Part shown: piece by piece, positions 9,004 to 21,286 of the stretch
How the letters are laid out: each line of letters opens with the position of its first letter
How positions within the stretch are numbered: the first letter of the stretch is position 1
Assembly: GCA_016873835.1 (NCBI GenBank)
Contig: VGVY01000001.1
Location: forward strand, 1 to 64,000
Origin: Ignavibacteria bacterium
GTDB lineage: Bacteria > Bacteroidota > Ignavibacteria > Ignavibacteriales > Melioribacteraceae
Direction of reading: 5' to 3'
Length of the DNA: 64,000 bases
Notes under the pieces: generated by a model
Seen by the model: only the letters and a program-made list of their open reading frames with translations
What the model was told of the DNA's origin: nothing
Database searches by the model: none
Translations under genes and position numbers: made by a program

Positions 9004-9030
9004 TTTATTTATCATACCTTAAATTTATTC

Positions 9031-9059
9031 TTGACAAATGGAATTTCACTATTTATATT
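9031..9059 (+). promoter_or_regulatory. Promoter of the ilv-leu-cimA operon
   Basis: A perfect TTGACA (9031-9036) and TATATT (9054-9059) are separated by exactly 17 nt. The predicted start is near 9066. This gives a leader of about 290 nt before ilvD that contains the Ile/Leu/Val leader peptide and the attenuator hairpins. Confidence 0.8.
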
Positions 9060-9144
9060 CACCCCTAAATTTTCACTAATGATTAACTCACAACAAAATA
9101 GCGCTCAAAAAAATTTGATGGCTAAAATCACCAAAGGGAATGTT

Positions 9145-9249
9145 GTGAGCATTTATTCAATAAATTTCATTTCTTCAGAAACAATTCTACTAGGGATTAT
9201 TATTCTTTTAGCTCTACTAGTGGTAAATATTATTGCCATTATTAGCTAA
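9145..9249 (+). CDS. ilv operon leader peptide (Ile/Leu/Val-rich)
   Basis: A short ORF between the promoter and ilvD encodes a peptide whose last 21 residues before the stop contain 8 Ile, 6 Leu and 2 Val (16 of 21), in runs such as ILLGIIILLALLVV. Translation of this stretch would stall when branched-chain aminoacyl-tRNAs are scarce. GTG 9145 is preferred because AAAGGGA (9133-9139) lies 5 nt upstream, giving 34 aa; ATG 9118 (43 aa) and ATG 9079 are in the same frame and cannot be excluded. The peptide has no expected function beyond being translated. The alternative, a real small membrane protein, is less likely given the flanking hairpins. Confidence 0.75.
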   Translation: MSIYSINFISSETILLGIIILLALLVVNIIAIIS

Positions 9250-9349
9250 AATAATAGGTCAATCCCAATATCTTACATAATAACATAAAATAATAAAAGT
9301 CAGATTGAGGGGTTGACAGAACCCTAAATTGATTCTGAAGATTTTTTTT
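9193..9349 (+). promoter_or_regulatory. Transcription attenuator of the ilv-leu-cimA operon
   Basis: Four segments can pair in the classical alternating way. Segment 1 is GGGATT (9193-9198) inside the leader peptide codons. Segment 2 is GTCAATCCC (9258-9266), just after the leader stop codon. Segment 3 is GGGGTTGAC (9309-9317). Segment 4 is AACCCT (9320-9325). Pairing 1:2 is 6 bp. Pairing 2:3 is 9 bp with one G-U (antiterminator). Pairing 3:4 is 6 bp. Pairing 3:4 is extended outward by TCAGA (9300-9304) with TCTGA (9334-9338), forming a terminator stem followed by eight T (9342-9349). Stalling within the leader codons would hide segment 1, favour 2:3 and permit read-through into ilvD. Confidence 0.75.
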
Positions 9350-9359
9350 GGAGGAAATC

Positions 9360-11039
9360 TTGAGATCTGATTTAATCAAAAAAGGGTTTGAAAAAGCTCC
9401 ACACAGAAGTTTATTGAAAGCAACCGGAGTCATCAAAAGTGACGAGGATTTCAACAAACCCTTTATTGGTATTTGTAATTCATATATAGATTTGATTCCC
9501 GGTCACGTTCATCTGCAAGAATTTGGTAAACTAATTAAAGATGCTGTTAGAGAAGCTGGTGGTGTTCCTTTTGAATTCAATACAATTGGTGTTGATGATG
9601 GAATTGCAATGGGTCATCTTGGAATGCGCTATTCACTTGCAAGCAGAGAATTAATCGCAGATTCGGTTGAGACAGTTGTTGAAGCACATCGTCTTGATGG
9701 AATGATATGCATTCCAAATTGTGATAAGATTGTTCCGGGTATGATGATGGGCGCGGCACGTGTTGATATCCCAACAATTTTTATTTCCGGCGGACCAATG
9801 AAAGCGGGCCGATTACCAAGTGGTGAAAAAGTTGATCTAATTTCTGTATTTGAAGGAGTTGGGAAATATTCAAGCGGTATTATTGGTGATACTGAATTAA
9901 AACAACTTGAAAATTTTGGTTGCCCAACTTGTGGTTCGTGTGCTGGAATGTTTACTGCAAACTCAATGAATTGTTTGCTTGAAGCATTAGGATTAGCATT
10001 GCCCGGCAATGGTACAATTTTAGCAGTTGATCCAAAAAGAAAAGAACTTGCAATTTCTGCTGCTAAACAAATTTTGAAGTTAGTACAAGATGAGTTAAAA
10101 CCAAGTAAAATTTTAAACTATAACTCATTCAAAAATGCTTTCACACTCGATCTTGCGATGGGAGGAAGCACAAATACAATTTTGCATACACTTGCTGTTG
10201 CTCATGAAGCTGGTATTGAGCTTGATTTAGAAATGTTAAATGAGCTTGCAGAAATTGTTCCTTACTTGTGTAAAGTTAGCCCGGCAACAAAAGAAGTCCA
10301 TATTGAAGATGTTGATGAAGCCGGCGGGATTTCTGCAATTCTAAAAGAACTGACCAAGAAAAACTTGATAGAAAAAAATTGTATGACGGTTACCGGAAAT
10401 ACATTAGGTGAAAATATTTCTTCAGCAAGAAATTTAAACGAAAATGTTATTAGAACAATTGATAATCCATTCTCACAAAAAGGAGGATTAGCTGTTCTGT
10501 TTGGAAATCTTGCACCCGATGGTGCAATTGTAAAAACCGGAGCTGTTGATGAAAAAATGTTTAAATTTTCTGGACCAGCAAAAATTTATGAATCACAAGA
10601 AGAAGCAGTTGAAAAAATTCTTAAAGGTGATCTTAATGCTGGTGATGTTGTTGTGATTCGTTATGAAGGACCAAAGGGTGGACCGGGGATGCCTGAAATG
10701 TTAACTCCAACTAGTGCAATAATGGGAATGGGATTAGGAGATAAAGTTGCATTAATAACAGATGGAAGATTTTCAGGAGGTACAAGGGGTGCGTGTATTG
10801 GTCACGTATCGCCAGAAGCAGCAGAACGTGGTCCTATTGCAGCTCTAAAAAATGGTGATGTTATTGAAATAGATATACTTGAACGAAAACTAAATATAAA
10901 ACTTTCGGATGAAGAGATTTCTAGCAGAATAAAATCACTGCAAAAGTTCGAACCAAAAATAAAGCGTGGTTATTTAGCTCGTTATTCACAGCTTGTAACC
11001 TCAGCTAATAGAGGAGCAGTTTTAACTAACAGATTTTAA
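9360..11039 (+). CDS. ilvD: Dihydroxy-acid dehydratase
   Basis: This enzyme dehydrates 2,3-dihydroxy-isovalerate and 2,3-dihydroxy-3-methylvalerate to the keto acids that precede valine/leucine and isoleucine. The 559-aa protein has the conserved iron-sulfur cysteines in [23 protein letters not shown] and [17 protein letters not shown], plus the C-terminal [12 protein letters not shown] and [10 protein letters not shown] motifs. The start is TTG 9360, 5 nt after GGAGG (9350-9354). The longer frame from 9348 would place the start upstream of this ribosome site and inside the attenuator U-tract. It is the first structural gene of the operon and ends 8 nt before ilvB. Confidence 0.95.
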
Positions 11040-11047
11040 GGAGGAAT

Positions 11048-12763
11048 ATGGAAAAGGATAGTCAAGTGTTGAGTGGTGCAGACATATTTTTTGAATGCTT
11101 AAAAAGAGAAAAAGTTGAATACATTTTCGGTTATCCTGGGGGAGCCGTTTTAAAATTATATGAACATCTTTATGATGTCGATTTTTTAAAACACATTCTT
11201 GTTCGCCACGAACAAGGAGCCGTTCACATGGCTGAAGGTTATGCCAAAGCTTCTGGAAAAGTTGGGGTAGTTCTAGTTACATCTGGTCCTGGGGCTACTA
11301 ACACTGTAACGGGAATTGCGGATGCATATATGGACTCTGTACCAATAGTCGTGTTTACGGGACAAGTACCTTCTCACCTAATTGGTAATGATGCTTTCCA
11401 AGAAGCTGATATCGTTGGAATTACAAGACCAATTACAAAACACAATTTTCTTGTTCGAAATATTAATGAACTTGCTTTGACAATAAGAAAAGCATTTTTT
11501 ATTGCAGCAACTGGAAGACCTGGTCCAGTCGTAGTTGATCTACCAAAGGATGTAATTAATTCGAAAACAAAGTTTGAATATCCAGTTGATGTAGATCTTC
11601 GTGGATATAAACCAATATATAAAGGTCACACAAATCAAATTAAAAAAGCAGCAGAAATAATTTCAAAATCTAAAAGACCTTTACTTTATGTCGGCGGCGG
11701 AGTTATTATGTCTGGCGGCACAAATGAACTTGCATTATTAGCAAGAGAAAATAAATTTCCAGTCACCATGACGCTTCAAGGATTAGGTGCTTTTCCCGGA
11801 ACGGATGATTTATCGTTAGGAATGTTAGGAATGCATGGAACATATTGGGCAAATCAAGCTGTTAACAACTGTGATCTTTTGATTTCTTTAGGTGCAAGAT
11901 TTGATGATAGAGTAACCGGAAGGCTTGATACTTTTGCAACAAAGGCATTTAAAATTCATGTAGACATTGATCCAACTTGTATTGATAAAAATGTAATAGT
12001 TGATTTGCCAATTGTTGGAGATGTAAAACACATAATGGCAGAAATTGCAGCCGAATTAAATTCACCGCCCGACACTAATGAATGGCTGGCACAAATAAAA
12101 GAATGGAAAAAAGAATGTCCAATGCACTACGATAATGATGGAAGATTAAGAACTGAATTTGTAATCGAAAAAATTTCTGAGAAGACAAAAGGTAATGCGG
12201 TAGTGGTAACTGATGTTGGACAACATCAAATGTGGACTGCTCAATATTTTAAATACAATTATCCGCGTTCAAATATTACAAGCGGTGGTTTAGGAACAAT
12301 GGGATTTTCAGTCCCAGCGGCAATTGGTGCGTCTTTCGCCGTACAAGATAGACCAATCATTTCCATAAGCGGCGATGGCGGTTTCCAAATGAATATGCAA
12401 GAACTAATTACTGCCAGTTATAATAAAGTTCCGGTTAAGTTTTTCATTATCAATAATAGTTTTTTAGGAATGGTAAGACAGTGGCAAGAACTTTTTCATG
12501 CCGAGAAATACAGTTTTACAGACCTAAGAGCAAGTAATCCGGATTTTATGAAAGTTGGTGAAGCTTTTAATATTGAATCGTATTCAACTGAAAATCCAAA
12601 CGAAGTTGATTCCTTATTAGACAAAGCTTTTTCCATTAATGACCGTCCAGTCTTAATTGAGTTTAAGGTAGTAAAAGAAGATATGGTATTTCCTATGGTC
12701 CCATCCGGAGGTTCAATTTCTGATATGATAGTTAAAAGATTAAATCCAAAGAGGATGACATAA
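11048..12763 (+). CDS. ilvB: Acetolactate synthase large (catalytic) subunit
   Basis: This TPP- and FAD-dependent enzyme condenses two pyruvates to acetolactate, or pyruvate with 2-ketobutyrate to acetohydroxybutyrate. The 571-aa protein shows the catalytic glutamate in RHEQGAVHMAEGYA (E55) and the TPP-binding GDGGF...INN motif in the C-terminal third. ATG 11048 is preceded by AAGGAGGA. Its stop overlaps the start of ilvN by one base (TAATG), indicating translational coupling with the regulatory subunit. Confidence 0.95.
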   Translation: MEKDSQVLSGADIFFECLKREKVEYIFGYPGGAVLKLYEHLYDVDFLKHILVRHEQGAVHMAEGYAKASGKVGVVLVTSGPGATNTVTGIADAYMDSVPIVVFTGQVPSHLIGNDAFQEADIVGITRPITKHNFLVRNINELALTIRKAFFIAATGRPGPVVVDLPKDVINSKTKFEYPVDVDLRGYKPIYKGHTNQIKKAAEIISKSKRPLLYVGGGVIMSGGTNELALLARENKFPVTMTLQGLGAFPGTDDLSLGMLGMHGTYWANQAVNNCDLLISLGARFDDRVTGRLDTFATKAFKIHVDIDPTCIDKNVIVDLPIVGDVKHIMAEIAAELNSPPDTNEWLAQIKEWKKECPMHYDNDGRLRTEFVIEKISEKTKGNAVVVTDVGQHQMWTAQYFKYNYPRSNITSGGLGTMGFSVPAAIGASFAVQDRPIISISGDGGFQMNMQELITASYNKVPVKFFIINNSFLGMVRQWQELFHAEKYSFTDLRASNPDFMKVGEAFNIESYSTENPNEVDSLLDKAFSINDRPVLIEFKVVKEDMVFPMVPSGGSISDMIVKRLNPKRMT

Positions 12764-13272
12764 TGAAACATACAATTTCAATTTTAGTCGAAAATCATTT
12801 TGGTGCCTTCGATAGAGTTGCTACTATGTTCAGTGGTAAAGGATTTAACATTAGAAGTATTTCGATTGGTGAAACAGAAATTGAAGAGATTTCCAGAATG
12901 ACAATTGTAACTGAAGGTGATGATCAAATAATTGATCAAGTAGTAAAACAATTAAACCGGCTTATCGATACAATTAAAGTTGTTGATCTATCAGATGTAC
13001 CTCGCATTGAACGTGAGCTAGCCTTGATCAAGGTAACTATGAACAAAGGCTCGATGGAAGAAATAAAAAACATTAACGACATTTTTCGCGGAAACATCGT
13101 AGATATTACAAACAAAACCATGACATTAGAAATTACTGGTCCGCCGGATAAAGTTGATGCTGCAATAAATGTTCTTTCACCCTTCGGAATAAAGGAGCTT
13201 GCAAGAAGTGGTGTTGTAGCGATTAAAAGAGGTGAGCAATCAAAAATTGTAAAAAAACAAAATCTATCATAA
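12763..13272 (+). CDS. ilvN: Acetolactate synthase small (regulatory) subunit
   Basis: The 169-aa protein begins with an ACT domain (TISILVENHFGAFDRVATMF...GFNIRSISIG), which in the family binds valine and mediates feedback inhibition of the large subunit. The C-terminal half matches the conserved small-subunit activation domain. The length is usual for the longer IlvN/IlvH type (about 160-175 aa). The ATG start overlaps the ilvB stop by one base, and ilvC follows after 18 nt. Confidence 0.95.
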   Translation: MKHTISILVENHFGAFDRVATMFSGKGFNIRSISIGETEIEEISRMTIVTEGDDQIIDQVVKQLNRLIDTIKVVDLSDVPRIERELALIKVTMNKGSMEEIKNINDIFRGNIVDITNKTMTLEITGPPDKVDAAINVLSPFGIKELARSGVVAIKRGEQSKIVKKQNLS

Positions 13273-13290
13273 ACATACTGAGGCACTAAA

Positions 13291-14280
13291 ATGAAAGTTT
13301 ATTACGATGATGATTCAAATCTAGAATTACTCAAAGGAAAAAATGTTGTTGTGCTTGGATTTGGCAGCCAAGGACACGCGCACGCTCTCAATTTAAAAGA
13401 GAGTGGCGTTAATGTTTGCGTTGGACTTCGAAAGGAATCTGCTAATTGGAAAAATGCAGAGTCTGCTGGACTTGAAGTCAAAACAGTTTCTGAAGCAGTC
13501 AAATGGGGAAATGTTATAATGATTCTGCTTCCCGATCAAAATCAAAAATCAGTTTATGAAAATGAGATAAACCCAAATTTAAAAGAAGGCGATACGCTTG
13601 CATTTGGTCATGGTTTTAATATTCATTACAAACAAATTGTTCCCCCTTCAAATGTTAACGTAATGATGATTGCGCCTAAAAGTCCGGGACATTTAGTACG
13701 CAGAACATTTCAACAAGGTAGCGGAACCCCATGTCTTATTGCAGTCTATCAAAATCCAAGCGGCAATACAAAAGAATTAGCTTTGGCTTGGGCAAAAGGA
13801 ATAGGTGGAACAAGAGCTGGCGTTATTGAAACTAATTTTAAAGATGAAACTGAAACCGATTTGTTTGGCGAACAAGCAGTTCTTTGCGGGGGTTCAGCTC
13901 AATTAATTAAAGCTGGATTTGAAACTTTAGTTGATGCCGGTTATCCGCCAGAACTTGCTTATTTTGAATGCATGCATGAAATGAAATTAATTGTGGATCT
14001 CTATTATGAAGGTGGATTATCCAGAATGAATTATTCTGTAAGTGATACTGCGGAATATGGAGGCATGACTCGCGGTTCAAGAATTATTACAGAGGAAACT
14101 AAAAAAGAAATGAAAAAAATTCTTAAAGAAGTTCAAGATGGAAGTTTTGCAATGGAATGGTTAAACGAATATAACAGCGGACAAAAACAAATGAATAAAC
14201 TGAGAAAAGAAAATAAGGAGCATCCTATTGAAACTATTGGTTCTAAACTGCGCGAAATGATGAGTTGGTTAAAAAAATAA
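13291..14280 (+). CDS. ilvC: Ketol-acid reductoisomerase (class I, NADPH type)
   Basis: This enzyme isomerises and reduces acetolactate or acetohydroxybutyrate to the dihydroxy acids used by IlvD. The 329-aa class I protein has the Rossmann motif GFGSQG (23-28). The cofactor loop GLRKESANW has Arg47 and Ser50, consistent with NADPH preference. The C-terminal metal-binding region has [14 protein letters not shown] and [15 protein letters not shown] 13291 is preceded by CTGAGG. It lies between ilvN and leuB. Confidence 0.95.
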
Positions 14281-14320
14281 TTTTGAAAGTATTAAAAGCT
14301 GTCTCATAAATGGAGTAACA

Positions 14321-15415
14321 ATGTATAAAATTGTTTTGTTGCCTGGTGATGGAATAGGAAATGAAGTAACAGCATCTGCTGTGGAAATAATAAAAACAGT
14401 TTCTAAATATTTTAATGTAGAGATACAACTTGAAGAACATTTAATTGGAGGTTCTTCTTATGATAAATATGGCACTCCAATAACTGATGAAACTTTATCT
14501 GCTTGTTATAATTCCGATGCTGTTTTTCTTGGGGCAGTTGGAGGTTTTAAATGGGATAATCTTCCTCATCAATTAAAACCAGAAGCAGCATTATTGAAAC
14601 TTAGAAAAGCGTTAGGATTATTTGCAAATATCCGTCCAGCTAAAATTTATAGGCCTCTTCTCGATTCTTCAACACTAAAAAAAGAAGTTTTAGAAAACGT
14701 TGATTTTATAGTACTGAGAGAACTGACAAGCGGAATTTATTTTGGTGAACCAAGAATGTTTGATGATATGCATGGTCTTAACACAATGATATATCATAAA
14801 GAAGAAGTTGAACGGATTGCAAAAATAGCATTCAAAATTGCAAGAGAAAGAAATAAAAAAGTTACTTCTGTTGATAAAGCTAACGTACTTGAAGTTTCTC
14901 AGTTTTGGCGGAATGTTGTTCATCAAGTACATAAAGAATTTGAAGATGTTCAATTAAGTGATATGTACGTTGATAATGCAGCAATGCAAATTGTCCGTAA
15001 TCCAAAACAGTTTGATGTAATTCTAACTTCAAATTTATTTGGAGATATTTTAAGTGACATTGCTGGAATGATAACCGGAAGTTTGGGAATGCTTCCTTCG
15101 GCAAGTTTAGGGACAAAATATTCATTGTACGAACCAGTTCACGGCAGTGCACCTGACATAGCCGGACAAAATAAAGCCAATCCATTGGCAGCAATTGCTT
15201 CTGTTGCAATGATGTTCGATTATTCATTCGGATTAAAGAGTGCAGCTAATTTAATTAACGAAGCAATTTCAAAAAGTCTTGAAGAAAATTTTCGTACAAC
15301 TGACATTTATTCAAAAGGTTGTCAACTCGTTTCAACAAATGAAATGACGAAATCAGTAATTGAAAAATTCGAAGAACTATTTCATTCTCAAGCAATTGGG
15401 GTCTTTACACTTTAA
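14321..15415 (+). CDS. leuB: 3-Isopropylmalate dehydrogenase
   Basis: The 364-aa beta-decarboxylating dehydrogenase oxidises 3-isopropylmalate to 2-ketoisocaproate in leucine synthesis. With CimA present, it should also convert erythro-3-methylmalate to 2-ketobutyrate. Visible motifs are GDGIGNEV near the N-terminus, LRELTSGIYFGEPR, NLFGDILSD for metal binding, and EPVHGSAPDIAGQNKANP for NAD binding. ATG 14321 is preceded by TGGAG. It sits 40 nt after ilvC and 24 nt before leuA. Confidence 0.95.
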   Translation: MYKIVLLPGDGIGNEVTASAVEIIKTVSKYFNVEIQLEEHLIGGSSYDKYGTPITDETLSACYNSDAVFLGAVGGFKWDNLPHQLKPEAALLKLRKALGLFANIRPAKIYRPLLDSSTLKKEVLENVDFIVLRELTSGIYFGEPRMFDDMHGLNTMIYHKEEVERIAKIAFKIARERNKKVTSVDKANVLEVSQFWRNVVHQVHKEFEDVQLSDMYVDNAAMQIVRNPKQFDVILTSNLFGDILSDIAGMITGSLGMLPSASLGTKYSLYEPVHGSAPDIAGQNKANPLAAIASVAMMFDYSFGLKSAANLINEAISKSLEENFRTTDIYSKGCQLVSTNEMTKSVIEKFEELFHSQAIGVFTL

Positions 15416-15439
15416 TTATTTAATTTTTTTGAGGTAACA

Positions 15440-17023
15440 ATGAGAGAAAAAATAATAATTTTTGATACAACTTTAAGAGATGGTGAACAGTCTCCGGGTG
15501 CATCATTATCTGTACATGATAAAGTTGAAATTGCTCGTCAACTATCAAGATTAAATGTTGATGTAATTGAAGCTGGTTTTCCAGTTTCATCACCAACACA
15601 ATTTGAAGCTGTCAAAAGAATTTCAGATGAATCTGATAAAATAATTGCCGGTCTTTGTCGTGCAAAAGAAATAGATATTAAAACAGCTTATGATGCTCTT
15701 CGAAATGCAAAGCATCCAAGAATACATACATTTTCAAGTACTTCAGATATTCATGTTTTAGGAAAATTTAGTGATAGTAAATATGGTATTTCTCTAAAAG
15801 AAAAAAAGTCAACAGTTTTAAAAATGTCAGTTGATGCAGTTGCATTTGCAAAAACATTTACAAGCGACATTGAATTTTCTGCTGAAGATGCCGGTAGAAC
15901 AGATATTGGATATCTCTGTGAGATTATTGAAGCAGTAATCGAAGCCGGAGCTACTACTATCAACATCCCAGATACAACTGGATATACATTTCCACATGAG
16001 CTTGGAAATAAATTTTATGAAATAAAAAATAGAGTTAAAAATATTAATAAAATTATCTTAAGTGCTCACTGCCATAATGATTTGGGTTTAGCGGTTGCTA
16101 ATTCAATTTCAGCAATTAATAATGGAGCGCGGCAAATTGAATGCACAATCAATGGAATTGGAGAAAGAGCCGGCAATGCTTCCTTAGAAGAATTAGTGAT
16201 GGCATTAAAGGTCAGAAAGGAAATAAATAATTATTACACAGATATAAATACTACTGAAATTTATAATACAAGCAGAATGGTTTCTAGTTACACTGGTATA
16301 ATAGTTCAGCCGAACAAAGCAATAGTTGGTGATAATGCATTTGCACACGAGAGTGGTATTCATCAAGATGGTGTTCTAAAAGATAAATCAACTTATGAAA
16401 TAATGACTCCAGAATCGATTGGAGTTCCAAAAAGTAAAATCATTTTAGGAAGACATTCTGGAAGACACGGATTAAAATCAAGATTGAAAGAGCTTGGATA
16501 TCATCCATCTGAAGAAGAGATGCAAAATGTTTATGAATCATTTCTTGATCTTGCCGATAAAAAGAAAGAAGTTTTTGATGATGATCTCAGAATGCTGATG
16601 GGTGACGAAGAAATAACTCACTCTGCTTATTATAAAATTGATTACCTCAATGTTATTTCTGGAAATGCTGCAATTCCAACTGCTACTGTAAGAATAAAAT
16701 CTCCTGAAAATGTTTTCGAAGAATCATCTACTGGCGATGGTCCAGTTGACGCCCTATTCAATGCTATTGACAGAGCTTTAAATATTAAGCCGACTGTTGA
16801 ATCTTATTCAGTTAGATCAGTAACTTCTGGCAGACAAGCACTTGGTGAAGTAAATCTTCGTCTAAAATTTGGAAATAAATATTTAGGAGGAAGAGGTTTA
16901 TCAACAGATATTATTGAAGCGAGCTGCAAAGCTTACTTGCAAGCAATTAATCATGATGTTTTTTTAAAAATGGAGAATCAATTTGATTATGAGTACGAGA
17001 ATCAGATAAGGTTTAGAGGGTAA
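15440..17023 (+). CDS. leuA: 2-Isopropylmalate synthase
   Basis: This enzyme condenses acetyl-CoA with 2-ketoisovalerate, the first committed step of leucine synthesis. The 527-aa protein has the HMGL-like TIM barrel with DTTLRDGEQSPGAS at residues 9-22 and the metal-binding HCHNDLGLAVANS segment. It then has the ESGIHQDG and GRHSGRHGL linker motifs and a C-terminal LeuA dimer domain expected to bind leucine as feedback inhibitor. ATG 15440 follows TTGAGGTAAC. The paralogous cimA at 18956 shares the barrel but differs in the substrate loop (DGTQGEA), which supports assigning this copy to leucine. Confidence 0.93.
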   Translation: MREKIIIFDTTLRDGEQSPGASLSVHDKVEIARQLSRLNVDVIEAGFPVSSPTQFEAVKRISDESDKIIAGLCRAKEIDIKTAYDALRNAKHPRIHTFSSTSDIHVLGKFSDSKYGISLKEKKSTVLKMSVDAVAFAKTFTSDIEFSAEDAGRTDIGYLCEIIEAVIEAGATTINIPDTTGYTFPHELGNKFYEIKNRVKNINKIILSAHCHNDLGLAVANSISAINNGARQIECTINGIGERAGNASLEELVMALKVRKEINNYYTDINTTEIYNTSRMVSSYTGIIVQPNKAIVGDNAFAHESGIHQDGVLKDKSTYEIMTPESIGVPKSKIILGRHSGRHGLKSRLKELGYHPSEEEMQNVYESFLDLADKKKEVFDDDLRMLMGDEEITHSAYYKIDYLNVISGNAAIPTATVRIKSPENVFEESSTGDGPVDALFNAIDRALNIKPTVESYSVRSVTSGRQALGEVNLRLKFGNKYLGGRGLSTDIIEASCKAYLQAINHDVFLKMENQFDYEYENQIRFRG

Positions 17024-17024
17024 A

Positions 17025-18320
17025 ATGGGAATGACTATTACAGAAAAAATTTTTGCAAAAGCTTCAGGTAAAAAAATTTTGCAGCCTGGGGAAAATGTTT
17101 GGCTTAATGTTGATGTATTAATGACGCACGATGTTTGCGGTCCTCCAACAATTAACATTTGGAAAAATGAATTTGGGGTAAATGCAAAAATTTGGGATAA
17201 AAATAAATTAGTAATTTTCCCAGATCATTACATCTTTACTAATAATCCTCACGCAAATAGAAATGTAGATTTGCTTCGACAATTTTCGGCAGAACAAAAC
17301 CTACCCAACTATTTTGATGTTGGAACAGAAAAGTATAAAGGTGTTTGCCATATCGCATTAGCTGAAGAAGGATTTAACATTCCTGGTACAGTTTTATTCG
17401 GAACTGATTCACATACATGTACAAGCGGTGCTTTCGGAATGTTTGCTACTGGAGTTGGTAACACAGATGCAGCATTCATTTTAGGTACTGGTAAAATTTG
17501 GGAAAAAGTTCCAGAATCTATGAAGTTTTCTTTTCATGGTGAAATGCCCGAGTACTTAACAGCTAAAGATTTAATTCTGCATATACTTGGTGATATCACT
17601 ACAGATGGTGCAACATACCGTGCAATGGAATTTGATGGTGAAGCAATTGAAAAAATGAATATGAATGAAAGAATGAGTCTTACAAATATGGCAATTGAAG
17701 CTGGTGGAATGAATGGCATAATTTCAGTTGATGATGTGACAAAAAATTACCTCGCTGAGATTGGCATTAAAGAATATGATGAATTTTACAGTGATGCTGA
17801 TTCAAAATACTTTTCTATATATGAATATTATGTATCATCAATTGAACCAACAGTAGCAAAACCTCATAGCCCTGATAATCGAGACACAGTTCGAAACGTA
17901 GAAGGAACCAAACTTACAAAATGTTATATCGGTTCTTGCACCGGCGGAAAAATAACTGACTTTCAGAATACAGCAAAAATATTAGTTGGTCAGAAAGTTA
18001 AAGTTCCAACCTTTATTGTTCCAGCTAGCACTCAAGTGGCTGCAAAACTTTCTGAAGAAACCATAAATGGAATTTCATTAAAAGAAATTTTTTTGAATGC
18101 CGGCTGCATAATTGCAGAATCTTCATGTGCTGCTTGTCTTGGTGGTCCTTCAGATACAATTGGAAGAAGTACAGATGGAGATGTAGTAATTTCTACAACG
18201 AACAGAAATTTTCCGGGCAGAATGGGAAGTAAAACATCGGAAATTTATTTGTCTTCTCCTTTAACGGTTGCTGCAAGTGCTATAAGTGGAGTAATAACTG
18301 ATCCGAGGAAATTTTTATAA
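17025..18320 (+). CDS. leuC: 3-Isopropylmalate dehydratase large subunit
   Basis: This aconitase-family subunit carries the 4Fe-4S cluster that isomerises 2- to 3-isopropylmalate. Together with CimA in the same operon, it would also isomerise citramalate. The 431-aa length fits the shorter LeuC type. Cluster ligands are visible at C305 (YIGSCTGG), C368 and C371 (SSCAACLGGPSD), and GTDSHTC lies at 126-132. ATG 17025, one base after the leuA stop, has AGAGGG 4 nt upstream; ATG 17031 is a possible alternative. A 64-nt spacer separates it from leuD. Confidence 0.94.
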   Translation: MGMTITEKIFAKASGKKILQPGENVWLNVDVLMTHDVCGPPTINIWKNEFGVNAKIWDKNKLVIFPDHYIFTNNPHANRNVDLLRQFSAEQNLPNYFDVGTEKYKGVCHIALAEEGFNIPGTVLFGTDSHTCTSGAFGMFATGVGNTDAAFILGTGKIWEKVPESMKFSFHGEMPEYLTAKDLILHILGDITTDGATYRAMEFDGEAIEKMNMNERMSLTNMAIEAGGMNGIISVDDVTKNYLAEIGIKEYDEFYSDADSKYFSIYEYYVSSIEPTVAKPHSPDNRDTVRNVEGTKLTKCYIGSCTGGKITDFQNTAKILVGQKVKVPTFIVPASTQVAAKLSEETINGISLKEIFLNAGCIIAESSCAACLGGPSDTIGRSTDGDVVISTTNRNFPGRMGSKTSEIYLSSPLTVAASAISGVITDPRKFL

Positions 18321-18384
18321 TTAAAAAGGTAAAAATTAAGCTCAAACTAACTTAAAAATGATATTTTAAAAAGAGCAGAGAAGA

Positions 18385-18942
18385 ATGGCAAATATAATTG
18401 TTGGGAAAGCATTTGTTCTTGGAGATAATATTGATACTGATCAAATTATTCCCGCTGAACATCTGGTATACAGCACGAGTAATCCAAGTGAATTAAAAAT
18501 GTATGGGAAGTTTTCTCTTTCTGGAGTACCAATAGAAAAATCTGGATTACCCAATGGGAGCTGTAAATTTATTGAAGGTGAAGAACTAACTTCAGGATAT
18601 TCAATAGTTATTGGAGGGAAAAATTTTGGATGCGGTTCTTCCAGAGAACATGCTCCACTTTCACTTCATGTTGCCGGAGTTAAAATAATTGTAGCAGAAT
18701 CTTATGCAAGAATTTTTTATAGAAATTCTGTTGACGGCGGTTTTATAATTCCTATTGAATCTATTGAAAAATTAAATGATAAAATTTCAACTGGTGATGA
18801 AATTGAGATTGATTTGGGAAAAAACAATTTGACTGTAATGACAACCGGAAAAACTTACAATTTAAAACCACTTGGCAGTGTAATCGAAATTGTTAGAAGC
18901 GGCGGACTTTTTAACTATGCAAGAAAAAAGAAAATGATTTGA
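18385..18942 (+). CDS. leuD: 3-Isopropylmalate dehydratase small subunit
   Basis: This 185-aa swivelling domain partners LeuC. It has the family motifs GDNIDTDQIIPAEHL at about 13-27, GKNFGCGSSREHAP around 73-86, and the IVAESYARIFYRNS segment. The length is normal for the small-subunit type paired with short LeuC. The ATG is preceded by GCAGAGAAGA. The 64-nt gap to leuC contains a GGTAAAAATT stretch resembling the ribosome-site motif seen elsewhere, but no ORF follows it. Confidence 0.94.
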   Translation: MANIIVGKAFVLGDNIDTDQIIPAEHLVYSTSNPSELKMYGKFSLSGVPIEKSGLPNGSCKFIEGEELTSGYSIVIGGKNFGCGSSREHAPLSLHVAGVKIIVAESYARIFYRNSVDGGFIIPIESIEKLNDKISTGDEIEIDLGKNNLTVMTTGKTYNLKPLGSVIEIVRSGGLFNYARKKKMI

Positions 18943-18955
18943 GAAGGACATTATA

Positions 18956-20548
18956 ATGAGTTCAAGAACAATAGAATTATTTGATACAACACTTCGTGAC
19001 GGAACACAAGGCGAAGCAATAACTCTTACAGTTCGTGATAAACTTTCGATAGCTCAAAAGTTAGATGAATTTGGTATTGATATTATTGAAGGAGGATGGC
19101 CTGGCAGTAATCCTCGCGACGAAGAATTTTTTAAAGAAGCAAAAAAAATAAAACTATCACATTCTGAATTATGTGCTTTTAGTTCTACTGCAAGATTTCC
19201 AGATAAAATTTCATCAGACTCAAATATTAATGCACTTTTATTTGCTGAAACTCCAATGGTTTCTATTTTTGGCAAGACCTGGAAATTTCATGCAGAGTTT
19301 GGACTTGGTCTTTCTGAAGATGAAAATGAAGAATTGATTTTTAATTCGGTTAAGTTTTTGGTTGAAAGAGGAAGAAGAGTTGTATTTGATGCCGAACATT
19401 TTTTTGATGGATATAAGGACAACAGAAATTTTGCAATGAAAATGCTTAAAGCTGCAGAAAGTGGCGGCGCATCAGTTATTACATTATGCGACACAAATGG
19501 AGGGACTTTATCTTCGCAAATAAAAAGTGTTGTTCAGGATGTTTTAGAAAATATTTCAAGCCCCATTGGAATTCATACTCATAATGATAGCGAACTTGCT
19601 GTTGCCAATTCATTAATTGCGATTGAAACTGGGGCAAGTCATGTTCAAGGAACAATAAATGGTGTGGGAGAAAGATGCGGTAATGCAAACCTAATTAGTA
19701 TCATTCCAAATCTATTGTTAAAGATGGGGTATTCAACAAAGCGAAAAATTCAACTTGAGCATCTAACTTCTTTGTCAAATTTTGTTTTTGAATTAATGAA
19801 TCTTGCACCAAATACTCGCGCTGCATTTGTTGGTAAATCAGCTTTTGCTCATAAAGGAGGAATTCATGTAAGTGCTGTTTTGAAAGACAGCAGAATGTAT
19901 GAACATTTAAACCCAAGTTTAGTTGGAAATATTCAACGTGTGCTTGTATCAGATTTATCAGGTCAGAGTAATATCAAATATAAAGCTAAGGAATTTGGAA
20001 TCGATGTTTCTGACAACACAGAGTTCAGTAAAAAATTAGTCAGTCATATTAAAAATCTTGAATATAATGGATATCAGTTTGATGGTGCTGAAGCTTCATT
20101 CGAATTGATTCTTCATTCAGAAAAAAATGATTTTAGTCCTTTCTTTAACACAATTGATTCAAAAGTGAATGTCACATTTGATGATCAAAAACAATCTAAT
20201 GCAGAAGCAGTTATTAAGATTGAAGTTAATGGAGAAATTGAACACACTGTTGCAAATGGAAATGGACCGGTAAATGCATTAGATAATGCACTTAGAAAAG
20301 CACTTGTGAGGTTTTATCCAGAAGTGTCAATAATTAAACTTGTTGATTATAAAGTACGAGTTCTTGATGAAAAAGATGGTACGGCGGCTAAGGTACGAGT
20401 TCTAATTGAATCAAGTGATGGAGAATCAATTTGGTCTACTGTTGGGGTATCTGAAAATATTATTGAAGCAAGCTGGCAAGCATTATGTGATAGCATAAAT
20501 TATAAGCTTTTCAAAATTCAGAAAAACAAAATTCTCAAAGTAAATTAA
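18956..20548 (+). CDS. cimA: (R)-Citramalate synthase
   Basis: This enzyme condenses pyruvate and acetyl-CoA to citramalate, the entry to threonine-independent isoleucine synthesis. The 530-aa protein is a second LeuA-like synthase with DTTLRDGTQGEAI at about residues 9-21, the IIEGGWPGSNPRDEEFF substrate region typical of CimA, HTHNDSELAVAN, AFAHKGGIHVSA and a C-terminal LeuA-dimer domain. Asn-Pro and Gly-Trp in the substrate loop separate it from leucine-type LeuA. It closes the ilv-leu operon, so LeuCD/LeuB made from the same mRNA can act on its product; no ilvA is present in the window. ATG 18956 follows GAGAAGGA. Confidence 0.93.
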   Translation: MSSRTIELFDTTLRDGTQGEAITLTVRDKLSIAQKLDEFGIDIIEGGWPGSNPRDEEFFKEAKKIKLSHSELCAFSSTARFPDKISSDSNINALLFAETPMVSIFGKTWKFHAEFGLGLSEDENEELIFNSVKFLVERGRRVVFDAEHFFDGYKDNRNFAMKMLKAAESGGASVITLCDTNGGTLSSQIKSVVQDVLENISSPIGIHTHNDSELAVANSLIAIETGASHVQGTINGVGERCGNANLISIIPNLLLKMGYSTKRKIQLEHLTSLSNFVFELMNLAPNTRAAFVGKSAFAHKGGIHVSAVLKDSRMYEHLNPSLVGNIQRVLVSDLSGQSNIKYKAKEFGIDVSDNTEFSKKLVSHIKNLEYNGYQFDGAEASFELILHSEKNDFSPFFNTIDSKVNVTFDDQKQSNAEAVIKIEVNGEIEHTVANGNGPVNALDNALRKALVRFYPEVSIIKLVDYKVRVLDEKDGTAAKVRVLIESSDGESIWSTVGVSENIIEASWQALCDSINYKLFKIQKNKILKVN

Positions 20549-20633: not shown

Positions 20634-20717
20634 GGGCGGACGCCGGAGTTGGAGAGCCGGGGCGGACTGTAAATCCGTTGGCAAACGCCTTTGGGGGTTC
20701 GAATCCCTCGCCGCCCA
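20634..20717 (+). tRNA. tRNA-Tyr (GTA)
   Basis: Class II tRNA with acceptor GGGCGGA/GCCGCCC (last pair mismatched), D stem CCGG/CCGG, anticodon stem GCGGA/TCCGT around loop CTGTAAA (anticodon GTA), a long variable arm and T loop TTCGAAT. CCA is not encoded. It is the first of a Tyr-Gly-Thr cluster, an arrangement that in many bacteria precedes tufB. Confidence 0.93.
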
Positions 20718-20815
20718 CAATTTAGAATTGCTGAAGGAGAATCAACTCCAAAATTATTCGTACTTCGCCAGTTCTTTCCCCTTTGCGAAATAGTTTATTT
20801 ATTTTGAGAGATTTC

Positions 20816-20829
20816 TCTCTCTATTTTTA
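20816..20829 (+). other. Short hairpin between tRNA-Tyr and tRNA-Gly
   Basis: AGAGA-ttt-CTCTCT is followed by a T-rich stretch (tatttttatt) just before tRNA-Gly. It could be a weak terminator or a processing site in the tRNA precursor. The remainder of the 119-nt spacer shows no gene that I can support. Confidence 0.3.
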
Positions 20830-20836
20830 TTGAAAT

Positions 20837-20909
20837 GCGGGAGTAACTCAGTTGGTAGAGTCACAGCCTTCCAAGCTGTTGGTCGCGGGTTCGAGTCCCG
20901 TCTCCCGCT
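20837..20909 (+). tRNA. tRNA-Gly (TCC)
   Basis: Acceptor GCGGGAG/CTCCCGC, D stem ACTC/GAGT, anticodon stem ACAGC/GCTGT with loop CTTCCAA (anticodon TCC), T arm GCGGG-TTCGAGT-CCCGT. The discriminator is T and CCA is not encoded. It lies 7 nt before tRNA-Thr. Confidence 0.95.
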
Positions 20910-20916
20910 CAGAAAT

Positions 20917-20989
<73 letters not shown>

Positions 20990-21020
20990 CAACAAGAATG
21001 AGATTTAAAAGGTAAAATAA

Positions 21021-21188
21021 ATGGCAAAATCAAAAAATATTAGACAAATAATAATTTTAGAAAGTAGCGCCGGTACGGGCTATCGATATAGTACAAAAAA
21101 GAATAAAAGAAATCATCCTAACCGCGTAGAGTATAAGAAATACGATCCAGTTGCTAAAAAACACGTAATATTTAAGGAAACTAAATAA
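21021..21188 (+). CDS. rpmG: 50S ribosomal protein L33
   Basis: The 55-aa protein contains the L33 core ([14 protein letters not shown]...[15 protein letters not shown]). It has no cysteines, so it is the zinc-independent form. ATG 21021 is preceded by GGTAAAATAA, the unusual ribosome-site motif shared with secE, rplK and rplA. It is packed tightly between tRNA genes: tRNA-Thr ends 31 nt upstream and tRNA-Trp begins one base after the stop codon. RNase P cleavage of the tRNA would therefore cut the message almost at its stop. Confidence 0.92.
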
Positions 21189-21189
21189 T

Positions 21190-21262
<73 letters not shown>

Positions 21263-21286
21263 CAAGGGATAAAAACGGTAAAAATA

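What the first reader, a model, noticed from the sequence alone, without database searches (positions are those of the whole stretch)
9031..9360. Complete ribosome-mediated attenuator in front of ilvD-B-N-C-leuBACD-cimA
The 344-nt region between yifB and ilvD holds a perfect TTGACA-N17-TATATT promoter, a leader ORF and a three-state hairpin system. Segment 1, GGGATT (9193-9198), lies inside the leader codons and can pair with segment 2 (9258-9266). Segment 2 can instead pair with segment 3 (9309-9317, 9 bp). Segment 3 can instead pair with segment 4 (9320-9325) in a longer terminator (9300-9338) followed by eight T. This is the logic of enterobacterial ilv/leu/trp attenuation. Here, in an Ignavibacteria-like genome, one attenuator governs a nine-gene operon. 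The leader peptide is usually not annotated.
Basis: partly seen in the sequence, partly recalled or inferred. Interest (0 to 1): 0.8.

Follow-up and report, generated by a model that had tools for sequence, protein, structure and literature searches.

The report
Ribosome-sensing attenuator before ilv-leu operon
Before a nine-gene operon for making isoleucine, leucine and valine lies what looks like an RNA switch that senses these amino acids through translation of a short peptide; it belongs to a conserved bacterial family with an extra long-range RNA helix, and in most relatives examined the usual stop signal for transcription was not found.

Summary
The window holds a consensus-like promoter, a leader ORF (start better placed at ATG 9079; 56 aa ending ILLGIIILLALLVVNIIAIIS), segments 1-4 at the stated coordinates, a U8 tract and ilvD (TTG 9360). 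Of 40 ilvD upstreams read in the family, all 38 of the orthologous type carry the leader, as do 16 of 18 in other families of the order. Leader cores use Leu codon CTA at 48% against 5% in ilvD. Helix 2:3 covaries strongly. A folding model gives antitermination when the ribosome stalls in the Ile/Leu run, and terminator when it sits at the stop codon. No Rfam family matches. A terminator-like hairpin plus U-tract was found in 13 of 53 upstreams, including the window; the other 40 keep leader and core without it, so their readout is unknown. The element also precedes leuB in one genome and, as weak matches, ilvB in two others. Verdict: ribosome-mediated attenuator, a new variant of a known kind.

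The parts
9031..9059 (+). sigma-70-like promoter TTGACA-N17-TATATT
   Evidence: 11 of 12. In a 130-nt stretch reaching from upstream of the leader into it, TTGAC occurs in 53 of 53 upstreams and a -10-like word (TAnnTTTG, TATAATTG or TATATTC) in 40 of 53
9079..9249 (+). leader ORF, 56 aa, MINSQQNSAQKNLMAKITKGNVVSIYSINFISSETILLGIIILLALLVVNIIAIIS, stop TAA 9247-9249
   Evidence: start chosen by similarity of the N-terminus to L002 (MKNSQQHIA...) and others
9172..9186 (+). segment 1': leader codons that pair with 9327-9341
9193..9198 (+). segment 1, GGGATT (Gly-Ile codons), pairs with 9261-9266
9206..9251 (+). leader-end hairpin (9206-9213 with 9244-9251) that includes the stop codon and lies inside hairpin 1:2
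   Evidence: similar complementarity in relatives seen by eye only, not tested
9258..9266 (+). segment 2, GTCAATCCC; starts 11 nt after the first base of the stop codon
   Evidence: 7-13 nt in 35 of 38 family upstreams (not found by the pattern in L011 and L013; 29 nt in L007, which has a premature stop)
9300..9304 (+). 5' arm of the terminator base (TCAGA), competitor of segment 1' for 9334-9338
9309..9317 (+). segment 3, GGGGTTGAC; pairs with segment 2 (antiterminator) or segment 4 (terminator)
9320..9325 (+). segment 4 upper, AACCCT
9327..9341 (+). segment 4 lower, pairs with segment 1' (long-range) or, in part, with the terminator base 9300-9304
9342..9349 (+). U8 tract of the terminator (stem 9300-9338, -11.5 to -12.3 kcal/mol, 3-nt spacer)
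9350..9362 (+). Shine-Dalgarno GGAGG 9350-9354 and ilvD start TTG 9360
9360..20548 (+). operon ilvD-ilvB-ilvN-ilvC-leuB-leuA-leuC-leuD-cimA
   Evidence: co-transcription inferred from gene order and short gaps

Best explanation
It is a ribosome-mediated transcription attenuator that senses charged Ile/Leu/Val tRNAs and controls the ilv-leu-cimA operon. Transcription starts near 9066 (inferred) and a ribosome translates the 56-codon leader. With enough charged tRNA it reaches the stop codon and covers segment 2; segments 3 and 4 fold into the terminator and RNA polymerase stops in the U8 tract just before the ilvD Shine-Dalgarno site. When Ile, Leu or Val is short it stalls in the ILLGIIILLALLVVNIIAII run; segment 2 is free, pairs with segment 3 and prevents the terminator. 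If the stall lies far enough downstream, leader segment 1' behind the ribosome is free and captures the lower arm of segment 4, giving a second lock against the terminator. Without translation, hairpin 1:2 (-25.8 kcal/mol) should form first and let the terminator form. Shown: the sequence parts, their conservation, covariation of 2:3, partner-swap support for 1':4, and modelled folds. Inferred: ribosome stalling, termination, the role of 1':4 and the regulatory outcome.
For: Leader in all 38 orthologous-type upstreams read in the family (L007 has a premature stop) and 16 of 18 of other families in the order. I/L/V make up 97.6% of hydrophobic residues in the last 22 codons of 53 leaders against 69% in 11 TM-like stretches. 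CTA is 48% of Leu codons in leader cores against 5% in the same genomes' ilvD, higher in 27 of 29. Segment 2 begins 7-13 nt after the stop codon's first base in 35 of 38. 2:3 is 92.9% paired with 22 double-change cells, 0 of 500 shuffles; 1:2 94.0% with 5 cells, 1 of 500. Swapping partners among 52 upstreams over 28 segment pairs: 2:3 z -10.4, 1':4 z -8.9. Folding in the window with everything 5' of the ribosome masked: A-site 9181 gives P12 0.95 and P34 0.95; A-sites 9184-9205 give P23 0.94-0.97; at the stop with 14 nt beyond the A-site covered P34 is 0.95. Mean of 53 in the same mode: P23 0.77 at the Gly codon against 0.10 at the stop, P34 0.19 against 0.64. Covariance-model matches lie just before ilvD in 38 of the 39 matching family genomes (75 searched); the 39th, G033, has it before leuB.
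Against: No expression data. Terminator-like hairpin plus U-tract in only 13 of 53 upstreams (a stricter scan gave 4 of 53 and only a -2.6 kcal/mol stem in the window); the window's terminator has an imperfect stem and a 3-nt spacer, and the generic terminator scan did not list it. At equilibrium without ribosomes the window favours 2:3+1':4, so termination without translation rests on folding order. With 11 nt instead of 14 covered beyond the A-site, a ribosome at the stop leaves 2:3 at 0.85. With everything 5' of the ribosome masked, 2:3 is weak at A-sites 9211-9220 (0.03-0.53). Only 33 of 53 upstreams pass a strict switch criterion. 1:2 (z -3.7) and 3:4 upper (z -3.5) do not exceed the worst control pair, 2:5 (z -4.4). 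For 1:2 all double changes are at one pair, and a one-column slide keeps 77.8% paired with a higher covariation score than the helix itself (0.195 against 0.098).
Confidence: 0.85

Rival explanations
1. The conserved core (leader, 1:2/2:3, 1':4) is a ribosome-sensing switch whose main or ancestral readout is translation of ilvD (or Rho), not intrinsic termination: 4-lower pairs either with leader segment 1' (Shine-Dalgarno free) or with the Shine-Dalgarno flank (segment 5, closed). The U-tract terminator of the window's clade is a later addition.
For: 40 of 53 upstreams lack a terminator-like site by the rule. The flank of the ilvD Shine-Dalgarno site is complementary to 4-lower in a number of them, with what look like compensating changes, read by eye (CTGAA/TTCAG in L006, L032, L033, L131, L135, L138; CTGAT/ATCAG in L134; CTGT/ACAG in L128; CTGAAAG/CTTTCGG in L030; weaker, CTAA/TTAG in L017, L023). 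In 21 species chosen for this hairpin the modelled share of unpaired Shine-Dalgarno bases is 0.38 without ribosome, 0.17 with a ribosome on segment 1', 0.37 with a late stall. The GC-rich G453 copy before ilvB has the core and shows no U-tract in the 120 nt after the match (by eye).
Against: 4:5 gives z -3.7 to -3.8, no better than control pair 2:5 (z -4.0 to -4.4); in L017 and L023 the native partner ranks only 21st and 20th of 53. The 21 species were chosen after the fact; the 32 others show no change (0.36-0.42). Even in the 21, stalling (0.22-0.37) is not cleanly separated from the stop position (0.32). The window does not hide its Shine-Dalgarno site (unpaired 0.63; 98% of shuffled controls are at or below that).
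Confidence: 0.25
2. The ORF encodes a small membrane protein that merely happens to precede ilvD.
For: The C-terminal 22 residues are hydrophobic; the N-terminus (roughly M-K-N-x-x-[KQ]-[NH]-I) is recognisable across many genera (by eye).
Against: Hydrophobic residues are almost only I, L and V (97.6%), unlike TM-like stretches (69%); rare CTA codons; the codons overlap RNA helices with support of their own; spacing to segment 2 is nearly fixed.
Confidence: 0.03
3. A T-box, ppGpp or other known riboswitch controls the operon.
For: Such elements control ilv/leu operons elsewhere (T-box in B. subtilis: PMC5794164, passage; ppGpp riboswitch: PMC8632094, passage).
Against: No Rfam match in the window upstream at gathering score, and no such family among the 11 weak matches at E up to 10. 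Codon-level selection and the stop-codon spacing point to ribosome sensing.
Confidence: 0.02

Closest known systems
Enterobacterial ilv, leu and trp attenuators (classical model, recalled)
   Same: leader peptide rich in regulatory codons, rare Leu codon CTA, mutually exclusive 1:2, 2:3, 3:4 helices, terminator before the first gene
   Different: no Rfam family matches the window's leader at gathering score; additional conserved long-range helix 1':4; no terminator found in 40 of 53 upstreams
ilvD attenuator of Staphylococcus aureus (PMC5794164, passages read)
   Same: short Leu/Ile-rich ORF upstream of ilvD, terminator stem 52 nt after the peptide stop, stalling proposed to allow readthrough
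ilvB-II and ilvB-OMG uORF motifs (PMC10272879, outline and section 14 read)
   Same: uORF rich in branched-chain codons before BCAA genes; ilvB-OMG is reported from various phyla
   Different: those precede ilvB; their alignments were not seen, so identity of ilvB-OMG with the L194/L195 copies is not excluded
LEU element and ilvB leaders of Actinobacteria (PMC1262725, passages read)
   Same: leader ORF with Leu run; leader codons can pair with the Shine-Dalgarno box; attenuators with missing components
   Different: pseudoknot; other phylum; sequences not compared

Membership tests
ribosome-mediated transcription attenuators of amino acid operons | short translated leader ORF with a run of codons for the operon's products | tested here: met
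   38 of 38 orthologous-type upstreams read in the family and 16 of 18 in the rest of the order; codon bias. Translation itself not tested.
ribosome-mediated transcription attenuators of amino acid operons | antiterminator helix conserved by compensatory changes | tested here: met
   2:3; z -10.4
ribosome-mediated transcription attenuators of amino acid operons | competing 1:2 helix conserved by compensatory changes | tested here: inconclusive
   94.0% paired, 5 double-change cells at one pair (1 of 500 shuffles), but a one-column slide scores higher on covariation, and z -3.7 is within the range of controls
ribosome-mediated transcription attenuators of amino acid operons | intrinsic terminator with U-tract between leader and first gene | tested here: met
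   met in the window (-11.5 kcal/mol, T8, 3-nt spacer), though a stricter scan found only a -2.6 kcal/mol stem there; not met in 40 of 53 upstreams
ribosome-mediated transcription attenuators of amino acid operons | ribosome at the stop codon would mask segment 2 | tested here: met
   segment 2 begins 11 nt after the stop codon's first base; the modelled switch needs 14 nt covered, not 11
ribosome-mediated transcription attenuators of amino acid operons | readthrough rises when the cognate charged tRNA falls | not testable with these tools
   needs expression data
Rfam amino-acid leader families (Leu, Thr, Trp, His leaders; names recalled) | match to the covariance model | tested here: not met
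   none at gathering score in the window, none among the 11 weak matches in 9004-9400 at E up to 10
T-box | match to the T-box covariance model | tested here: not met
ilvB-OMG uORF motif | match to its alignment | not tested

The most novel reading that the evidence does not exclude
A phylum-old ribosome-sensing core with an exchangeable readout: leader segment 1' and segment 4-lower form a long-range helix that, in most members, frees the ilvD Shine-Dalgarno site from a 4:5 hairpin, so that leader translation controls translation (or Rho access) of the operon; the intrinsic terminator of the window's clade was added later, and the same core moved between ilvD, leuB and ilvB.
Probability: 0.25. 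Interest if true: 0.7.

Novelty: new variant of a known kind. Interest (0 to 1): 0.5.

Why it matters
Attenuation by leader peptides is a textbook mechanism described mainly from Proteobacteria, Actinobacteria and some Firmicutes (PMC2965389 and PMC5794164, passages). Here a conserved family (39 of 75 family genomes match its model) sits in little-studied relatives, with two helices supported independently that can be tested by mutation. Loss or absence of the terminator in 40 of 53 upstreams, with leader and core kept, makes the question of how an attenuator can change its readout testable by comparing close relatives. For annotation it adds a leader gene and a covariance model for which the window's copy has no match in Rfam.

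Tried and rejected
Slips, corrected: one search translated one base out of frame; read minus-strand loci in the wrong orientation (redone); one search did not apply the ribosome masks (redone); one search stopped with an error after a few rows (redone).

Translation-level switch: I expected Shine-Dalgarno accessibility to follow the ribosome in all relatives. The mean over 53 does not (0.30-0.41 with the footprint masked; 0.18-0.42 with everything 5' masked, the low values at the last codons with few sequences), and the 4:5 signal is no better than control pair 2:5. Kept only as a rival and as the novel case.

Terminator counts depend on the rule: stems ending within 2 nt of a T run gave 4 of 53 and no good stem in the window; allowing up to 4 nt gave 13 of 53. 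I loosened the rule after seeing that it missed the window's terminator; the shuffled control (2 of 318) was run with the looser rule. A first count by T content alone (7 or more T in 8) gave 20 of 54 and was dropped because several runs lie inside other stems.

A second exact segment 2/3 pattern in the window's genome (C70:11288-11348) lies antisense within an open frame of 325 aa and was taken as chance. The exact pattern itself found only 11 of 75 family genomes, so it is no measure of the family. For trp and his attenuators in the same genome there was nothing to examine: no hisG match and no trpE match over the cut-off; upstreams of the two weak trpE-family matches were not analysed.

Rows dropped before counts: L007 (premature stop in the leader) from all 53-upstream counts and from alignment A1; L137 (GC-rich) also from the 52-upstream permutation; L039 and L040 (44% identical ilvD) from family counts; L133, L136, L139 and L140 (no such leader) from the pairing statistics. 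Two family genomes with ilvD matches (G063, G040) were not read for the leader; the model later matched G063 and not G040. The covariance model was built from 40 of the 52 listed upstreams. The script that located segment 1 placed L005, and perhaps L030 and L034, at a later Gly codon, which blurs slightly.

Full report
What is there. Relatives suggest that the leader starts at ATG 9079, about 13 nt after the inferred start of transcription, giving 56 aa; by the script's choice of start 45 of 53 leaders have 49-57 aa. ilvD begins at TTG 9360 behind GGAGG, directly after the U8 tract 9342-9349. The nine genes downstream are ilvD, ilvB, ilvN, ilvC, leuB, leuA, leuC, leuD and cimA.

Conservation. 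In the window's family 42 of 79 genomes have an ilvD match. I read 40 of these upstreams: 38 belong to the orthologous type and all 38 have the leader (L007 with a premature stop); the two with a 44% identical ilvD differ (L039 has two other Ile/Leu-rich ORFs, L040 none). In other families of the order all 18 full-length matches of at least 71% identity listed were read: 16 have it (the GC-rich L137 in a divergent form), L133 and L136 do not; two upstreams of the 44% type (L139, L140) do not. Segment 2 begins 7-13 nt after the first base of the stop codon in 35 of 38 family upstreams. A covariance model of leader core to segment 3 (R1) matches 39 of 75 family genomes and 18 of 345 genomes drawn from the phylum, 16 of them in the window's order. 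In 38 of the 39 it lies just before ilvD. Other places: G033, before leuB; an orphan copy in G005; a second copy in G043 before a broken ilvD start; and two weak ones before ilvB elsewhere in the phylum (E 2.5e-5 and 8e-4). A weak match in G003 and an antisense one in G049 were not followed.

Codons, not a membrane protein. In the last 22 codons of 53 leaders I, L and V make up 97.6% of the hydrophobic residues, against 69% in 11 TM-like stretches of this window. CTA is 48% of Leu codons in the leader cores and 5% in the same genomes' ilvD; the leader has more in 27 of 29. Part of this bias may come from RNA pairing.

Helices. Helix 2:3 is 92.9% paired over 37 sequences with 22 double-change cells; none of 500 shuffles reaches that, and sliding lowers pairing to 18-53%. 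Helix 1:2 is 94.0% paired with 5 double-change cells (1 of 500), all at one pair; a one-column slide keeps 77.8% paired and has a higher covariation score. I then compared all 28 pairs of eight segments by native against swapped partners (52 upstreams): 2:3 z -10.4 and 1':4-lower z -8.9 stand apart; then 2:5 -4.4 (not expected, a control), 1:2 -3.7, 4-lower:5 -3.7, 3:4-upper -3.5; the other pairs lie between -3.2 and +3.5. So 2:3 and 1':4 are firmly supported, the rest only together with other evidence. In the window 1':4 pairs 9172-9180 with 9333-9341, 9182-9186 with 9327-9331, and 9191-9195 with 9322-9326. In L018 it is a nearly unbroken helix, and L026, L034 and L036 keep it with other letters. 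The native partner is not always best: in L015, L021, L024, L028, L029, L031 and L038 it ranks 17th to 35th of 37.

Model of the switch. With everything 5' of the ribosome masked: just before the Ile/Leu run (A-site 9181) 1:2 and 3:4 form (0.95 each); with the A-site at 9184-9205, 2:3 is 0.94-0.97; at the stop codon, covering 14 nt beyond the A-site, 3:4 is 0.95, but covering 11 nt, 2:3 stays at 0.85. In this mode 2:3 weakens for A-sites 9211-9220 (0.03-0.53); if RNA behind the ribosome may pair, 1':4 forms there (0.71-0.99) and 2:3 stays at 0.97 or more. I therefore infer that 1':4 is a second antiterminating lock that lets late codons be sensed. Over 53 upstreams P23 falls from 0.77 (Gly codon) to 0.10 (stop) and P34 rises from 0.19 to 0.64; 33 of 53 pass a strict criterion. 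These are equilibrium calculations. Free of ribosomes the window favours 2:3+1':4, so silence without translation depends on 1:2 forming first.

Readout. A terminator-like hairpin with U-tract occurs in 13 of 53 upstreams and 2 of 318 shuffles, including the window and L002, L009, L010 and L011. The other 40 keep leader and core. In some, 4-lower is complementary to the ilvD Shine-Dalgarno flank with apparent compensating changes, which suggests control of translation, but the permutation test does not separate this from a control and the model shows no general effect. The linker between segments 2 and 3 is poor in G (4.2% G, 15.5% C; C exceeds G in 51 of 53), which suits an unpaired spacer and would also suit Rho; nothing here decides.

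Known or new. No Rfam family matches the window upstream. Searches of the paper library for leader peptides or attenuation with Ignavibacteria, Chlorobi or Bacteroidetes listed no paper that describes this: none found, none by title. Subscription papers are mostly missing from the library, and a 2010 comparative survey of attenuators by Lopatovskaya and co-workers, seen only as a reference in PMC4833913, was not read. Attenuators before ilvD or ilvB are reported for S. aureus (PMC5794164, passages), Corynebacterium and, as ilvB-OMG, various phyla (PMC10272879, outline and one section); an ilvD-associated RNA motif of Veillonella is reported in PMC8632094 (passages); incomplete attenuators are reported for Actinobacteria (PMC1262725, passages). 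Hence: new variant of a known kind.

Noticed in passing
L143, L144, L145, L146, L148, L150, L156, L157 (and perhaps L153): In other families of the class ilvD is preceded by a different I/L/V-rich leader (for example ...LSLLLVLSLIIVG) followed by a conserved GCCAGAGGC...GCCTCTGGC-like hairpin and sometimes a U-tract: a second, apparently unrelated ilvD attenuator type (by eye). No Rfam match at gathering score in the eight of these nine that were scanned; L145 was not scanned.
   Followed up: partly
L193:283-407, L194:335-471, L195:310-449: The same core lies before leuB (G033) and, as weak matches, before ilvB in two other genomes of the phylum; the GC-rich L195 keeps GGGATT, GGTCAATCCC and GGGATTGACC.
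   Followed up: partly
L192:141-271 (reverse complement); L196:379-510: A copy of the element with no biosynthetic gene behind it in the stretch held (G005), and a copy before an ilvD start that stops after a few codons (G043).
   Followed up: partly
L039 (G033), upstream of a 44% identical ilvD: Two short Ile/Leu-rich ORFs, one MKNFSLINIILLIIVIIIPGYWE, reminiscent of enterobacterial ilv leaders (resemblance recalled).
   Followed up: no
L054, L065, L066, L074, L106, L118: ilvD of named Anaerolineae, Gemmatimonadetes, Desulfobacteria and one unassigned record is preceded by an I/L/V-rich ORF and a GC-rich hairpin, in several followed by a T-run: textbook-like attenuators in further phyla.
   Followed up: partly
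L042, L046: Records titled Caldithrix abyssi (MAG) and Bacteroidetes bacterium carry leader and segments 2/3 like the window's (GGTCAATCCC/GGGATTGACC and GGTCGATCCC/GGGGTTGACC) before ilvD (by eye).
   Followed up: partly
L007, leader before ilvD: Leader cut short by a premature stop codon; strain variant or assembly error.
   Followed up: no
window 20634-21263: tRNA genes Tyr, Gly, Thr and Trp follow the operon; the Tyr gene was found by ARAGORN but not at the Rfam gathering score.
   Followed up: partly
own genome G000: No hisG match and no trpE match over the cut-off in an assembly of 98.8% completeness, although genes for the Ile/Leu/Val pathway are present.
   Followed up: no
L046:1681-1868, minus strand: SAM riboswitch (72.3 bits) about 630 nt before ilvD, on the opposite strand, in a Bacteroidetes record.
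   Followed up: no
family of the window's genome: 37 of 79 family genomes lack an ilvD match and 36 of 75 lack the element: the operon seems absent from many relatives, which suggests repeated loss or gain of the pathway (some are incomplete assemblies).
   Followed up: no
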